Below are positions 20,411 through 62,612 of a stretch of 64,000 nucleotides of DNA, one piece after another; position 1 is the first letter of the stretch, and the number at the start of each line of letters is the position of its first letter. Location: contig RECC01000044.1 in assembly GCA_007692455.1 (NCBI GenBank), positions 1-64,000 on the forward strand, written 5' to 3'. The notes beneath the pieces were generated by a model. The model worked only from the letters and a program-made list of their open reading frames with translations. It ran no database searches and was not told where the DNA came from. This stretch comes from Alkalibacterium sp. Lineage in GTDB: Bacteria; Bacillota; Bacilli; Lactobacillales; Carnobacteriaceae_A. Position numbers and translations under genes: made by a program.

Positions 20411-21569
20411 TGGGGATGGTTACTAGGAATGTCAATCCAAACCCAACAAGTGCCAGCAAACCGGCAATGAAAAAGACAGTCGTTTCAACTTCAAAAAGTG
20501 TCAGTAGAAACGGTCCAACAAGTGCCGAAATTCCGTAAGCCTGATAAAGAATGCCATAATTTGATCCGAAGTAATAGGAACCGAAGTAATCACTGCAGAC
20601 TGCTGGAAAGGTGGCCAGAAAGCCTCCAAAGCAGCTGACTATAATCCCAAGCAGAGCAAAATAAGTGAAGGCATTAAGTGGGAACATACTTAGTGACGTC
20701 ATTCCCAGAGCAGTAAGCAGGAAGAGTGCCGCGAACACACGAAGGCGTCCAATGATATCAGACAAAGCACCCCAGCCCAATCGGCCGACAGCGTTGAATA
20801 CTGCAGCAACCGCCACTGCCATGCCAGCAGTTTGAGGATTCAACCCTACTGTGTCTCTCGCGATGTCCTGTGCCATGCCGATAACAAGTAGACCACTCAG
20901 GCTACCGAAGAAATACATTACCCACAACAAGTAGAACGCCTTTGTCTTCAACATTTTTAATGTAGACAAGTCGTTTTCATTCACAATCATCTGACTCTTC
21001 TCATCGGTTTCCGGCACGCGGAGAAGGCTCGCTCCGAACAGACCGATCACTCCATACACCAACCCCTGAACCATAAAAGTGGCGGAAACCCCTACTGTGT
21101 TGATTAAATATGAGAGAATAAAATTAAACAGGAAGCCCCCCATACCGAAAGCCCCTATAGTAATTCCCGTGACCATTCCTTTCTTTTTAGGGTACCATTT
21201 TAAACTTGTGGAGAGTGGGCAGACATAGACCATCCCTACTCCAATACCACCAAGCAGGCTGTATCCTAAATACAGCGTCATCAGCGATGTTGCTTGAGAG
21301 GCTATCAGCAGTCCCAGACTGAAGCAGATTATCCCAGCTGTTGCTACTTTTCTCGGTCCAATTTTATCCTGGAGCCGACCTGAAAAAATGGTCACAAATG
21401 CAAATATAAATACAATCAGTGAATACGCAGTATAAACTTCTGTTCTGCTCCAGCCGAACTTTTCTGCCAGTGGCTGATTGAACAGACTCCACGTGTAAAT
21501 GCCGCCTATGCATAGCTGCATCAGGACGCCACCCAATAGAACTTTCCATCTTTTAGTAGATTTCTTCAT
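20382..21569 (-). CDS. MFS transporter, OFA (oxalate/formate antiporter-like) family
   Basis: Twelve-helix major facilitator of 395 residues. The N-terminus (LLGGVLMQLCIGGIYTWSLFNQPLAEKFGW) and the block SLLGGIGVGMVYVCPLSTSLKWYPKKKG are typical of the OFA subfamily, and the MFS loop motif GRLQDKIGPRK follows helix 2. Substrate is probably a small mono- or dicarboxylate, but subfamily members differ and it cannot be fixed here. Ribosome binding site GGGGAG. Transcribed alone; divergent from the AEC carrier gene. Confidence 0.88.
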   Translation of the reverse strand: MKKSTKRWKVLLGGVLMQLCIGGIYTWSLFNQPLAEKFGWSRTEVYTAYSLIVFIFAFVTIFSGRLQDKIGPRKVATAGIICFSLGLLIASQATSLMTLYLGYSLLGGIGVGMVYVCPLSTSLKWYPKKKGMVTGITIGAFGMGGFLFNFILSYLINTVGVSATFMVQGLVYGVIGLFGASLLRVPETDEKSQMIVNENDLSTLKMLKTKAFYLLWVMYFFGSLSGLLVIGMAQDIARDTVGLNPQTAGMAVAVAAVFNAVGRLGWGALSDIIGRLRVFAALFLLTALGMTSLSMFPLNAFTYFALLGIIVSCFGGFLATFPAVCSDYFGSYYFGSNYGILYQAYGISALVGPFLLTLFEVETTVFFIAGLLALVGFGLTFLVTIPRPYHAEKNS

Positions 21570-46236: not shown

Positions 46237-46800
46237 CTAAGCTCTAATGCTTTTCAAGCCCTTACTCCAGGATACAACTGTATCGAGTACAGCTTGAACA
46301 GTGGCATTGTGCACTTCTGCAGGTCGGAAAGTAGACATTTCTTCGAAGTCCGTAAATAGACTGAATGCGCCAAATGGTCCAACTGTTGCGACATTAGCAT
46401 TAGAGAGAATTGTACGCAGGTTAAGTGTTGCAGCTACTCCTAGTGTTGATCCATAACCGACGATTCCAGCCGCTTTGTTCCCCCACTCAGGTCCCAAGTA
46501 GTCAATTGCATTTTTCAAAGATGGTGAGACTGCCTTGTTATACTCAGGCGTCACAAAGACAAAGCCATCAAGAGAATCAACTTTCTGTGACCACTTATTG
46601 TTTGCTTCTTTATCGTACTGCTTGTTAGCCATTGCAGGCGGCATAGCTTCATTGAACAGCGGCAAGTCATAGTCTTTAATGTCGACTATTTCAAAGTTTG
46701 CCCCTTCAACTTCCTTTGATTTTTCCAAAATATACTCCGCTACTTGCCCGTTTACACGTGAATCACGAGTGCTTCCTGTTACAATACCTATCTTAACCAT
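46237..46800 (-). CDS. NADPH-dependent FMN reductase family protein
   Basis: Flavodoxin-fold oxidoreductase of 187 residues. The phosphate-binding loop for FMN is GSTRDSRVN near residue 9, followed by VFVTPEYNKAVSPSLKNAIDYL and GIVGYGSTLGVAATLNLRTIL. Relatives reduce quinones, azo dyes, chromate or iron. It is divergent from a TetR regulator with a shared control region, so it is likely induced by a ligand or electrophile that the regulator senses. Ribosome binding site AGGAGG. Confidence 0.9.
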   Translation of the reverse strand: MVKIGIVTGSTRDSRVNGQVAEYILEKSKEVEGANFEIVDIKDYDLPLFNEAMPPAMANKQYDKEANNKWSQKVDSLDGFVFVTPEYNKAVSPSLKNAIDYLGPEWGNKAAGIVGYGSTLGVAATLNLRTILSNANVATVGPFGAFSLFTDFEEMSTFRPAEVHNATVQAVLDTVVSWSKGLKSIRA

Positions 46801-46878
46801 AATTCATTTCCTCCTATAACTGTTTGTGTATATTGCTAACTTTTTGTAAGTCAGCTACATTACTCAGTATAAGGTATC

Positions 46879-46907
46879 TTGACTTCGAGATAAACCAACA
46901 GTATAGT
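46879..46907 (+). promoter_or_regulatory. Promoter of TetR-family gene
   Basis: TTGACT-N17-TATAGT, with predicted start near 46914. Confidence 0.82.
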
Positions 46908-59795: not shown

Positions 59796-60773
59796 TTATT
59801 TTTTATCAAAGGTCTTCGTGCTTCTGATGGTGTCTATATACCGGACCTGCTCCTCTATGGATTCACGCTGATTTTCCAGAAACGGGGGAAGTGATAATTT
59901 TTCTCCCAGAGTTTCATACGGCTCGTCTTCCATGAATCCCGGACCATCTGTCGCCAGTTCAATCAATATCCCTCCAGTTACACGGGCATAAAGTGATTTA
60001 AAGTAAAAGCGATCAACAAAACCTGAATTAGGCAGTTGGAACGACTTGTAGTGCTCAATCCATTTCTCGATAGCATCCTTATCGTCAACTCTGAATGCTA
60101 CGTGATGGACAGTCCCGTACCCTTGACGGTGAGAAGCAGCTGACGGATCTATCTCCACTACTACTTGTGCTCCATTTCCACCCTCGCCCATTTCAAATAA
60201 ATGGACATCCTTCTCCTGAGAAATTTCTTTCATGCCATATACTTGCTCCAGCACCGCTTTAATGTAGTCAAAATCTGGATAGGTGAAGAAGACAGGACCT
60301 AAACCAGTCAAGGCGTATTCAACTGGGACAGGGCCCTTCTGCCAAGGTGTTCCAGATTGTACACCTATGTTGTATTCGTCAGAAATAAGCTGATACCGCT
60401 GCCCGTCAAAATCCTGAAAACGCAGGACCTTTTTGCCGAACTGCTCACCAATTCCCTCATGCGTTACATCGTGTCGGTCAAAACGCTTGCCCCAATAGTC
60501 TAAAGCTTTATCTGTGGGAACACGGAATGATGTGCGTGAAATTTCATCGTTACCGTGCTCACCCTTTGGCGTATCAGGAAAATCAAAAAAGGTCATATCT
60601 GTTCCCGGACTGCCTTTATCATCTGCGAAAAACAGATGATAGGTCTGTATATCGTCCTGGTTGACTGTTTTTTTAACCAGTCTCAGTCCTAAAATATACG
60701 TAAAAAACTCATAAATTTCCTCAGCGCTACTGGTAATTGCTGTTACATGGTGTATCCCGTTTAGTTGTTTCAT
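59796..60773 (-). CDS. Ring-cleaving dioxygenase of the VOC superfamily (MhqA/MhqO-like)
   Basis: Probable hydroquinone-cleaving dioxygenase, 325 residues, two VOC modules. Module 1 begins LNGIHHVTAITSS (metal His) and contains FFDFPDTPKGEHG; module 2 has GTVHHVAFRVDD (metal His) and GGILIELATDGPGFMEDEP (metal Glu). These are the signatures of the MhqA/MhqO type that detoxify quinones in bacilli. The gene is driven by a perfect vegetative promoter with an MhqR-like operator over its start, which supports the assignment. Ribosome binding site AGGAGGG. Confidence 0.9.
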   Translation of the reverse strand: MKQLNGIHHVTAITSSAEEIYEFFTYILGLRLVKKTVNQDDIQTYHLFFADDKGSPGTDMTFFDFPDTPKGEHGNDEISRTSFRVPTDKALDYWGKRFDRHDVTHEGIGEQFGKKVLRFQDFDGQRYQLISDEYNIGVQSGTPWQKGPVPVEYALTGLGPVFFTYPDFDYIKAVLEQVYGMKEISQEKDVHLFEMGEGGNGAQVVVEIDPSAASHRQGYGTVHHVAFRVDDKDAIEKWIEHYKSFQLPNSGFVDRFYFKSLYARVTGGILIELATDGPGFMEDEPYETLGEKLSLPPFLENQRESIEEQVRYIDTIRSTKTFDKK

Positions 60774-60897: not shown

Positions 60898-60915
60898 TAT
60901 CTCGAATTCGAAATA
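60898..60915 (-). promoter_or_regulatory. MhqR-like operator
   Basis: TATCTCGAATTCGAAATA (plus strand) differs at one base from the palindrome TATCTCGAATTCGAGATA that I recall as the B. subtilis MhqR operator. It lies directly at the predicted start of the dioxygenase gene. Confidence 0.75.
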
Positions 60916-60944: not shown

Positions 60945-60980
60945 ATTATTGCATTTTTATTAAGATTACAACTGTTTGAT

Positions 60981-61027
60981 AATATTTATTAATATTGATT
61001 GCTATCTGAGCGAGAATATTTTATACT
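60981..61027 (+). promoter_or_regulatory. Promoter and palindrome upstream of the RNPP regulator
   Basis: TTGCTA-N17-TATACT (60999-61004, 61022-61027). A perfect AATATT-N4-AATATT palindrome at 60981-60996 abuts the -35 and might be an activator or autoregulator site. Confidence 0.5.
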
Positions 61028-61054: not shown

Positions 61055-61915
61055 ATGAAATTAGGGGAAATTATTAAGTTTAGGCGAAAAGAGCTTGGCT
61101 TAACCCAGCAAGAGCTGGCTAAAGATATTTGCGCTCAGGCACTTATCAGTCGGGTTGAAAAAGGCGATATTGTGCCAAAAAAATCGATTCTCGATAAACT
61201 TGAAACCCGATTAGGTTTGGAAAAGAACGAACTGATTAAAGCTGAACAGGATAATCAGAAAAAAAATGAACTGGATGACGTGAAGAAACAAATTCGCGGT
61301 TATTTGATAGCCCGTGATTACAAAACGATTGAACTGCTCTTAGACCATCACAAGCTACTGATTAACAGTTCACGCGACTTGAACGATAAAGTCTTCTTCT
61401 CTTGGATAGAAGCTTCTTTGCAGCACCAGCTTTATAATCAGAGTGACAAAGCTCTTGAAATTCTCAACGGAATGTATTTAGAGCAAGTTAAAGATGATCT
61501 GGCTATTGAAATTTTAAATGCTCGTGGGTTAATATATTATCAACGAGAAGAATATGAAGAAGCACTTTCCTCATATAAAAAAGGTATCAACCGCTTAAGT
61601 GATACAATTAATTATGAAGTTAAAGCCAAAATCATATTGAATTACTCACTGACACTTGAACAGCAAGGCTATAACAAAGAAGCCTTGTCTTACATTTCTG
61701 AAGGCATTGACACCCTGGTAGAAAACAATTCACTGTTTCTACTTGGTGACTATCATCACACGAAAGGACACATTTTCTACAAGCTAGGTAACTTAAATGA
61801 AGCCAAAGAAAACTTTGAATTGGCTATGCATTTGTTTAAACTCCAAAACAATCATAAACTTTTATCTTTCTCCCAATTGGCATTGACTGAAATCAATAAC
61901 AAACTGTCTAAATAA
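61055..61915 (+). CDS. RNPP-family (PlcR-like) peptide-responsive transcriptional regulator
   Basis: A 286-residue regulator from ATG 61055 (after GGGGA). The N-terminal XRE-type HTH (about 1-60, EIIKFRRKELGLTQQELAKDI) is followed by five or six TPR-like helical repeats (about 75-280; for example ALEILNGMYLEQ, EALSSYKKGINRL, EALSYISEGIDTL, EAKENFELAMHLF). Size and layout match PlcR/TprA-type quorum-sensing regulators, which bind a short imported peptide in the TPR groove. Thirteen bases downstream lies a gene for a small secreted peptide, the classical arrangement. Target genes unknown. Confidence 0.88.
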   Translation: MKLGEIIKFRRKELGLTQQELAKDICAQALISRVEKGDIVPKKSILDKLETRLGLEKNELIKAEQDNQKKNELDDVKKQIRGYLIARDYKTIELLLDHHKLLINSSRDLNDKVFFSWIEASLQHQLYNQSDKALEILNGMYLEQVKDDLAIEILNARGLIYYQREEYEEALSSYKKGINRLSDTINYEVKAKIILNYSLTLEQQGYNKEALSYISEGIDTLVENNSLFLLGDYHHTKGHIFYKLGNLNEAKENFELAMHLFKLQNNHKLLSFSQLALTEINNKLSK

Positions 61916-61928
61916 AGGAGGAGTCAAT

Positions 61929-62069
61929 ATGAAGAAAAACAGGAAAGTATTCTCGCTTGTACTAATCGGGGTAATGACGCTTACGTTCTTTGTATCGCCA
62001 TTGTCTATCCCGAGAATTCCACCTGTTGAACTACGCGCAGCCGTTGAAATTGACCACACTCTAGTTTAA
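61929..62069 (+). CDS. Small secreted pre-pro-peptide, candidate signal for the RNPP regulator
   Basis: A 46-codon gene with the near-consensus ribosome binding site AAAGGAGG, eight bases before ATG 61929. The product has a basic N-terminus (KKNRK), a hydrophobic core (FSLVLIGVMTLTFFV) and a short C-terminal tail after SPLSIPRIPP ending AAVEIDHTLV. This is the form of PapR-type pheromone precursors: Sec signal plus C-terminal peptide. Thirteen bases after the regulator stop and before a strong terminator, so co-transcribed. By analogy the last five to ten residues would be the mature signal; that cleavage is not visible in sequence. Confidence 0.8.
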   Translation: MKKNRKVFSLVLIGVMTLTFFVSPLSIPRIPPVELRAAVEIDHTLV

Positions 62070-62120
62070 ACCGTCCCAGCCAATTGGACGATAAAAGATT
62101 TCACGTATTAGGTACCTATA

Positions 62121-62157
62121 ACCGGACAGCAGGAAAATCCTGCTGTCCGGTTTATTT
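62121..62157 (+). terminator. Terminator of the RNPP regulator-peptide unit
   Basis: Perfect 15-bp stem AACCGGACAGCAGGA with its complement, 3-base loop, then TATTTG. Confidence 0.92.
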
Positions 62158-62270: not shown

Positions 62271-62612
62271 ATGCCAGACAGACGTGACGAGGAACCAAGA
62301 AGAGACGAAGATCCGCGTAGAAGAGAAGAAAACCGACGAACCGGATTATTCGCATTATTTTTCATTGCACTTATTATAATAGTCGGGGTTGTTGTATTTA
62401 TGTTCTTCTTCGGAGATGGAGACTCCCCTATGGACACCAATAACGGTGATCAGACAGAAGAACAAGTCGATGATAACGGTGATGACGATGCTGATTTAGA
62501 TGTCGACATTGATCTAAATGATAACGGTGACGATGCTGATACGGACACAGATACCGATACTGATACAGACACAGATACAGATACAGATACAGACACGGAT
62601 GACGGTGAATAA
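62271..62612 (+). CDS. Single-pass membrane protein with Asp-Thr repeat tail
   Basis: A 113-residue protein of unknown function. Arg/Glu/Asp-rich cytoplasmic N-terminus (RRDEEPRRDEDPRRREENRR), one membrane helix (about 27-48), then an extracellular, almost purely acidic tail that ends in about eleven Asp-Thr pairs. ATG 62271 follows AAAAAGGAGTG. The tail is encoded by an imperfect GA(T/C)AC(A/T/G) microsatellite (about 62538-62600), so its length may vary between strains. An extended -10-like TGCTATTCT lies at 62226-62234. Confidence 0.78.
   Translation: MPDRRDEEPRRDEDPRRREENRRTGLFALFFIALIIIVGVVVFMFFFGDGDSPMDTNNGDQTEEQVDDNGDDDADLDVDIDLNDNGDDADTDTDTDTDTDTDTDTDTDTDDGE
62538..62600 (+). repeat. 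Hexanucleotide-like Asp-Thr coding repeat
   Basis: Tandem GATAC(N)/GACAC(N) units encode alternating Asp and Thr. Third-base variation shows the repeat is maintained at protein level, although slippage is possible. Confidence 0.8.

What the first reader, a model, noticed from the sequence alone, without database searches (positions are those of the whole stretch)
61055..62069. Possible new PlcR-PapR-like peptide quorum-sensing cassette
An RNPP-type regulator (XRE HTH plus TPR repeats, 286 residues) is followed 13 bases later by a 46-codon gene that standard ORF cut-offs would miss. The small product has a signal peptide, an AAAGGAGG ribosome binding site and a short C-terminal tail ending AAVEIDHTLV. 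A strong terminator closes the unit. Seen: the genes, spacing and signals. Known: PlcR/PapR and TprA/PhrA use exactly this arrangement. Inferred: the tail, once cut, is re-imported and activates the regulator. The peptide sequence is unlike PapR, SHP or Phr peptides I know.
Basis: partly seen in the sequence, partly recalled or inferred. Interest (0 to 1): 0.9.

Follow-up and report, generated by a model that had tools for sequence, protein, structure and literature searches.

The report
PlcR-like peptide signalling pair in Alkalibacterium
A bacterium of the genus Alkalibacterium carries a two-gene unit, a DNA-binding receptor followed by a tiny gene for an exported peptide, that probably lets cells sense one another, and comparison with relatives suggests that the message is a conserved stretch in the middle of the peptide rather than its tail.

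Summary
In detail: a 286-residue HTH + TPR regulator (61055-61915), a 13-base gap, a 46-codon ORF with a strong ribosome binding site (61929-62069), and a terminator (62120-62152). The host is an Alkalibacterium assembly. The regulator models as a full-length PlcR fold and keeps the Asn that binds peptide backbones in RNPP receptors. The small ORF is a real gene: it lies beside 7 of 7 Alkalibacterium orthologs and both orthologs found in another genus, with pN/pS 0.37-0.39 in frame and no such constraint in the other frames. Of 33 family regulators examined (34 found), 14 have a linked peptide, 13 with an internal [IL]PP[VLF] core. So the signalling reading is supported, the AAVEIDHTLV assignment is not. 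Some distant relatives of the pair sit beside lanthipeptide or RiPP-like genes; this one does not. The promoter region holds an MhqR-like operator at the divergent dioxygenase. No experimental evidence exists. It is a new member of the RRNPP kind, on the PlcR/TprA side, in an order where a 2022 survey saw no PlcR systems.

The parts
61055..61915 (+). RNPP-type transcription regulator, 286 aa: N-terminal HTH, TPR C-terminal domain
   Evidence: Pfam HTH_3, RNPP_C, TPRs; AF2 pLDDT 94.1; PlcR best in the PDB by sequence profile (E 3.9e-25), Foldseek and VIA-align (Z 25.9)
61929..62069 (+). 46-aa candidate pheromone precursor: basic N-terminus (1-6), hydrophobic segment (7-22), conserved core SIPRIPPVELRA (26-37), variable tail (38-46)
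   Evidence: conserved beside 7 of 7 genus orthologs and both orthologs of another genus; pN/pS 0.37-0.39
62004..62039 (+). codons 26-37, SIPRIPPVELRA: inferred receptor-binding core. PRIPP and the Arg (codon 36) are the same in all seven orthologs; the following Ala in six (Thr in L006)
   Evidence: alignment; per-codon count in five orthologs; [IL]PP[VLF] in 13 of 14 linked peptides, shuffle mean 0.26, maximum 3
61914..61921 (+). AAAGGAGG ribosome binding site of the small ORF
   Evidence: read
60999..61027 (+). promoter-like site of the regulator-peptide unit, TTGCTA-17-TATACT (9 of 12 consensus matches), at the same place in six aligned orthologs
60949..60999 (+). conserved A+T-rich stretch upstream of the -35, with a short palindrome (60988-60999): candidate autoregulatory site (inferred)
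   Evidence: six-ortholog alignment; palindrome; its first 25 bases occur once in the held genome at up to 3 mismatches
62120..62152 (+). intrinsic terminator-like hairpin closing the unit
   Evidence: 15-pair stem, loop 3, T-rich tail

Best explanation
A self-contained RNPP cell-cell signalling cassette. Shown from sequence: the two genes lie in tandem, 13 bases apart, between one promoter-like site and one terminator-like hairpin, and are conserved together. Inferred: the precursor is pushed across the membrane by its hydrophobic N-terminus and cut near the outer face. A short peptide that includes the conserved core (about IPRIPPVE, perhaps on to RA) is carried back by an oligopeptide permease, sits in the TPR groove of the regulator (backbone held by N196) and changes how the HTH binds DNA, first of all at its own promoter. 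The tail is a trimming remnant or a variable specificity element. Some distant members of this receptor-peptide family sit beside RiPP-like genes; the Alkalibacterium ortholog has no such neighbour in the window and probably acts on genes elsewhere.
For: Receptor: RNPP_C/HTH/TPR; AF2 pLDDT 94.1, nearest PlcR over its full length, HTH included; profile match to PlcR E 3.9e-25 over positions 2-272. N196 aligns with RapF N227, the Asn described as strictly conserved in RNPP proteins and needed for peptide binding (PMC3601957, passages), and is invariant in 12 of 12 regulators. Peptide: present beside 9 of 9 orthologs; pN/pS 0.39 (0.27-0.54) and 0.37 (0.27-0.48), off-frame 0.94 and 2.28. 13 of 14 linked peptides and 5 of 6 representatives have [IL]PP[VLF]; shuffles reach 3 and 2 at most. 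The 15-row clade of family paralogs has no such ORF, two of its loci being cut short. Related cassettes beside LanB + LanC and other RiPP-like genes.
Against: No expression, peptide or binding data. A tethered receptor-peptide model of a pair from another genus left the peptide unplaced (pLDDT below 50). No clear signal-peptidase I site. L063, inside the NNGGKLPP clade, has no peptide next to it, and L013 has only a degenerate LPS core. No PlcR box in the unit. The six representatives are not six independent lineages: L001 and L009, and L021 and L030, each share a clade. Covariation of peptide and groove was not tested. The pN/pS of codons 26-32 (0.19) has an interval (0.00-0.71) that overlaps the tail's.
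Confidence: 0.65

Rival explanations
1. One reading: the signal is the C-terminal end of the precursor (within AAVEIDHTLV), as in PapR and most known RRNPP precursors.
For: In RRNPP propeptides the last 4-10 residues are usually the mature peptide (PMC10075063 section 8). The tail is still under some constraint (pN/pS 0.51, interval 0.32-0.85, codons 39-46). Group-specific tails could be pherotypes.
Against: Tails vary in sequence and, among relatives, in length (4-15 residues after the motif), even between two peptides of one genus that share GPKLPPVEFTQTFE. The invariant residues are internal.
Confidence: 0.2
2. The regulator is peptide-responsive, but the adjacent peptide stays in the membrane and acts there, for example as a membrane-held partner of the regulator or a small membrane protein, without export and re-import.
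For: One hydrophobic segment and no clear signal-peptidase I site.
Against: The most conserved part lies after the hydrophobic segment, and the gene order is that of known exported pheromones. Peptide-binding proteins and an M50 protease are encoded, but 11 and 14 of 14 control genomes have them too, so this says little.
Confidence: 0.12
3. About the target, and compatible with the best explanation: the regulator controls the divergent glyoxalase-fold dioxygenase-like gene (59796-60773, minus strand), a quinone or aromatic-stress circuit gated by cell density.
For: The divergent pair is kept in four loci looked at (window, L127, L128, L129).
Against: That gene's promoter (perfect TTGACA-17-TATAAT) carries TATCTCGAATTCGAAATA (60898-60915), nearly the S. 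aureus MhqR operator TATCTCGAA-aTCGAaATA (PMC6798810, passages), which points to a MarR-type quinone repressor; an MhqR gene was not looked for. L008 keeps the cassette without this neighbour.
Confidence: 0.15
4. Chance ORF or decayed gene.
For: Short, and found by no Pfam or NCBIfam model.
Against: Conservation, coding pattern and position.
Confidence: 0.02

Closest known systems
PlcR-PapR (Bacillus cereus group)
   Same: HTH + TPR receptor with the same fold; downstream tandem gene (recalled) for a precursor of 45 aa; an [LI]P-containing peptide (ADLPFEF; PMC3519770 passages).
   Different: About 20% identity; no PlcR box at up to one mismatch in the unit; conserved core internal rather than C-terminal; a second Pro (IPP/LPP) where PapR has LPF; found in Lactobacillales.
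PlcRa-PapRa (B. cereus)
   Same: Active heptapeptide CSIPYEY is internal to the precursor (PMC3519770 passages), as proposed here.
   Different: papRa lies upstream of plcRa and encodes 93 aa (same passages).
TprA-PhrA (Streptococcus pneumoniae)
   Same: Five-TPR receptor of Lactobacillales grouped with PlcR (PMC12700828 passages); RiPP control by TprA systems (recalled), as the neighbours of some distant paralogs suggest here.
   Different: Known PhrA signals lack an LPP core (recalled). Streptococcal cassettes met here (L066, L067, L069) have DPG-type peptides; the two of these receptors in the tree branch apart, on long branches.
Rgg-SHP, ComR-ComS, PrgX-cCF10
   Same: Lactobacillales peptide receptors with HTH and TPR-like domains.
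   Different: Their listed chains fit less well (Foldseek TMq 0.41-0.54 against 0.63-0.66 for PlcR); degenerate TPRs and other export routes (PMC9765709, PMC12700828 passages).

Membership tests
RRNPP (RRNPPA) receptor-propeptide systems | Receptor of 250-500 aa with peptide-binding TPRs, HTH in the regulator types | tested here: met
   286 aa; HTH_3, RNPP_C, TPRs; model
RRNPP (RRNPPA) receptor-propeptide systems | Adjacent propeptide gene of 10-100 aa within -60 to +400 bp | tested here: met
   46 aa at +13; criteria from PMC10075063 (passages)
RRNPP (RRNPPA) receptor-propeptide systems | Conserved TPR Asn that holds the peptide backbone (RapF N227) | tested here: met
   N196 aligns with RapF N227 (E 0.0013 for the stretch) and with PlcR N201; invariant in 12 of 12 rows of A1
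RRNPP (RRNPPA) receptor-propeptide systems | Sec-type N-terminal export signal on the propeptide | tested here: inconclusive
   basic + hydrophobic N-terminus, no clear SPase I site; SignalP not available
RRNPP (RRNPPA) receptor-propeptide systems | Mature peptide re-imported and bound by the receptor | not testable with these tools
   needs experiment; oligopeptide-binding proteins are encoded
PlcR subfamily | PlcR fold over the full length | tested here: met
   2qfc Z 25.9, 277 aligned, rmsd 6.2; 2qfc E 4.8e-9
PlcR subfamily | PlcR box TATGNAN4TNCATA (consensus recalled) at its promoter | tested here: not met
   no match at up to 1 mismatch in the unit; one in the whole window, at 21507
PlcR subfamily | PapR-type signal at the C-terminal end of the precursor | tested here: inconclusive
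   conserved core is internal and the tail varies, but the mature peptide is not known
TprA subfamily | Receptor groups with streptococcal TprA | tested here: inconclusive
   streptococcal rows branch apart, but on long branches; no TprA reference sequence was used

The most novel reading that the evidence does not exclude
A pheromone family of the Alkalibacterium family and its neighbours in Lactobacillales whose code is an internal (G/P)x[IL]PP[VLF]-type core, shared by a stand-alone regulator and by regulators of several RiPP-like clusters, so that one peptide could cross-talk between circuits and between species.
Probability: 0.2. Interest if true: 0.62.

Novelty: new member of a known kind. 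Interest (0 to 1): 0.42.

Why it matters
It puts a PlcR-like receptor with a downstream, hydrophobic-leader precursor into Lactobacillales outside the streptococci. A 2022 survey states that it found no evidence of PlcR systems in that order (PMC9765709, passages), although the same paper cites earlier work that did, and TprA is close to PlcR. It names a short conserved core that can be synthesised and tested directly, and related cassettes beside lanthipeptide and RiPP-like genes whose products might be switched on by such peptides.

Tried and rejected
Covariation of tail and TPR groove: no statistic was attempted; only seven genus orthologs exist. Regulon: a 25-base conserved promoter block was sought in the whole held genome (89.5% complete); only its own site was found, so no regulon is named. 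A PlcR box was not found in the unit. Phage records: no relative at E up to 1e-8. Plasmid records: 7 with distant regulators (24.7-31.1% identity), not followed. The search for related loci with one protein found four close relatives and two weak partial ones.

Wider search: in the order, 70 of 395 genomes matched and 30 loci were looked at. In the class, 24 of 398 matched and 26 loci were looked at: 9 of the 26 gave some short ORF past my ribosome-site and hydrophobicity filter. I judged two precursor-like (L098, L113) and two short ones possible (L099, L115); none has [IL]PP[VLF]. The first listing of small ORFs read minus-strand loci in the wrong orientation and was replaced.

Rows and choices: pN/pS used six orthologs (L001, L003-L007); L008 was left out as more diverged, and L006 also from the whole-length count because of one extra codon. 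Start codons of the L007, L008 and L021 peptides were moved to a downstream in-frame ATG; L013 and L030 use TTG. Family regulators: 34 matches, 33 examined (32, L089; G003:C18 was not fetched for this). L017 and L028 have only 208 and 78 bases downstream. The scan also gave four unrelated ORFs with [ILV]PP (two in L007, one each in L013 and L030), which I set aside. In the other genus (g4), 2 of 4 genomes have the ortholog; the two without are 71-72% complete.

Papers: PMC10075063 (passages, and section 8); PMC9765709, PMC12700828, PMC3519770, PMC3601957, PMC6798810 (passages only); the rest only as search listings. PMC2441798 is not held. Papers holding 'Alkalibacterium' and 'quorum sensing': 5, none on RNPP by title.

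Full report
OBSERVATION. The genes and signals are as described. The regulator runs from 61055 to 61915 (286 aa). The small ORF starts 13 bases after the stop, at 61929, and ends at 62069 (46 codons); AAAGGAGG overlaps the regulator's stop. A promoter-like TTGCTA-17-TATACT lies at 60999-61027 and a 15-pair terminator-like hairpin at 62120-62152. The window lies in a 2.05-Mb, 96-contig assembly. The named close relatives of the regulator are from Alkalibacterium olivapovliticus, A. thalassium, A. pelagium and an Alkalibacterium MAG, at 73-76% identity.

RECEPTOR. Pfam finds HTH_3, RNPP_C (PF18768, above its cut-off) and TPRs. With 12 family rows (A1) AlphaFold2 gives mean pLDDT 94.1, pTM 0.79. 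The best solved structure is PlcR by sequence profile (E 3.9e-25), by Foldseek (2qfc, E 4.8e-9) and by VIA-align (Z 25.9, 277 aligned, rmsd 6.2; the best non-PlcR row has Z 20.9 and covers residues 68-286 only). N196, invariant in the 12 rows, aligns with PlcR N201 and with RapF N227. [quoted passage not shown]

THE SMALL ORF IS A GENE. The 27 genomes held of the family were searched: 34 regulators in 20 genomes. This one and its six orthologs (59-76% identity) are in 7 of the 12 genomes of the genus, and each has the ORF starting -4 to +14 bases from its stop; the two orthologs found in another genus (49-50%) have it at +29 and +39. In six genus orthologs the in-frame pN/pS is 0.39 (bootstrap 0.27-0.54, codons 2-38); in five over the whole length 0.37 (0.27-0.48); the two other frames give 0.94 and 2.28.

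WHERE THE INFORMATION LIES. In all seven genus peptides PRIPP and the Arg four residues further on are the same; the next residue is Ala in six and Thr in L006. In the per-codon count of five orthologs these residues stay while synonymous changes occur at most of them; codons 26-32 give 0.19 (0.00-0.71) and codons 33-46 give 0.54 (0.35-0.81). The intervals overlap, so this contrast alone is only suggestive. Wider comparison says more: of 33 family regulators examined, 14 have a linked peptide, and 13 of these carry [IL]PP[VLF] (shuffles average 0.26, maximum 3). Among six representatives it is 5 of 6 (shuffle maximum 2), though two pairs of these share a clade. Examples are PRIPPVEL (window), GPKLPPVEF (another genus), NNGGKLPPLP, DGGRLPPFP and GDEHLPPVE; L013 has GDGKDLPSTE. 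After the motif 4 to 15 residues follow, without a sequence common to all. The two peptides of the other genus agree in GPKLPPVEFTQTFE and then end differently. I therefore place the signal in the core. A resemblance to PapR7 (ADLPFEF) and PapRa7 (CSIPYEY; PMC3519770, passages) is visible, but it is short and the Glu is not conserved here.

RELATIVES WITHOUT A PEPTIDE. Nineteen of the 33 have none by this search: a 15-row clade of its own (support 100/100; two of its loci are cut short), L089 (not in the tree), and L063, L064 and L065. L063 belongs to the NNGGKLPP clade and is a real exception. The own genome has one peptide-less paralog (L002).

NEIGHBOURS. Some distant cassettes lie beside RiPP-like genes: L119, a lantibiotic dehydratase and LanC with a small Ser/Thr/Cys-containing candidate precursor (read); L122, a RamC_N/kinase protein and an S9 peptidase; L123, ThiF, arginase-type and isochorismatase-type proteins and one that resembles daptide or epipeptide metalloproteases below their cut-offs. 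L120 and L121 have ABC transporters. The window's cassette has no such neighbour. Upstream it shares a 281-base intergenic region with a divergent glyoxalase-fold gene (ring-cleaving dioxygenase by resemblance, recalled). That promoter is TTGACA-17-TATAAT with TATCTCGAATTCGAAATA at 60898-60915, close to the MhqR operator of S. aureus (PMC6798810, passages). It is therefore more likely under a quinone-responsive repressor than under the RNPP regulator alone; no MhqR gene was looked for.

MECHANISM. Inferred: export by the N-terminal hydrophobic segment, cutting outside or in the membrane, re-import by an oligopeptide permease (three binding proteins encoded; 11 of 14 control genomes have such proteins too), binding in the TPR groove, altered DNA binding. 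An M50 protease is encoded, as in 14 of 14 control genomes. A tethered model of one pair left the peptide unplaced. Activation versus repression, the mature peptide and the regulon are open.

KNOWN OR NEW. The kind is known: RRNPP, PlcR/TprA side. By gene order, fold and conserved Asn it is an RRNPP system. It is not filed as a PlcR-PapR system proper: no PlcR box in the unit, and the conserved core is not C-terminal. A 2022 survey saw no PlcR systems in Lactobacillales (PMC9765709, passages). RRNPP_detector reports two Carnobacteriaceae gene clusters next to candidate systems (PMC10075063, passages), so some relatives may already be catalogued. My literature searches listed no paper that by title or abstract start treats this pair.

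Noticed in passing
60898-60915 and 46875-46892: Two MhqR-operator-like palindromes: one at the divergent dioxygenase-like gene, one (2 mismatches) upstream of a gene that looks like an NADPH-dependent FMN reductase (46237-46800, minus strand, function by eye). Possibly a small quinone-stress regulon.
   Followed up: partly
62274-62609: Small membrane protein with a charged N-terminus and a DTDTDT acidic tail, kept downstream of the cassette in L128 and L129 but not in L127; no Pfam family.
   Followed up: no
L119:10827-15012 and neighbours: Lantibiotic dehydratase and LanC genes with ABC transporters, next to an RNPP regulator whose peptide has DGGRLPPFP.
   Followed up: partly
L122:6864-10245: RamC_N/kinase protein, S9 peptidase and a 96-aa ORF without a family: possibly a class III-type lanthipeptide cluster near an RNPP-peptide pair.
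   Followed up: no
L123:2088-7177: ThiF, arginase-type, isochorismatase-type and HExxH-protease-like genes in line with an RNPP-peptide pair (GDEHLPPVERQS): a possible unusual RiPP pathway.
   Followed up: no
L054, just after the regulator (-4): Another genus of the order: a 22-aa ORF MKLLKVAKIVTTLCLLIPPIIF overlaps the stop of a related regulator and also holds an IPP.
   Followed up: no
L098 and L113 (one genome of another family): Two PlcR-like regulators with secreted-peptide-like ORFs of other sequence, ending LPDLPSRH and SEDIPAEP.
   Followed up: no
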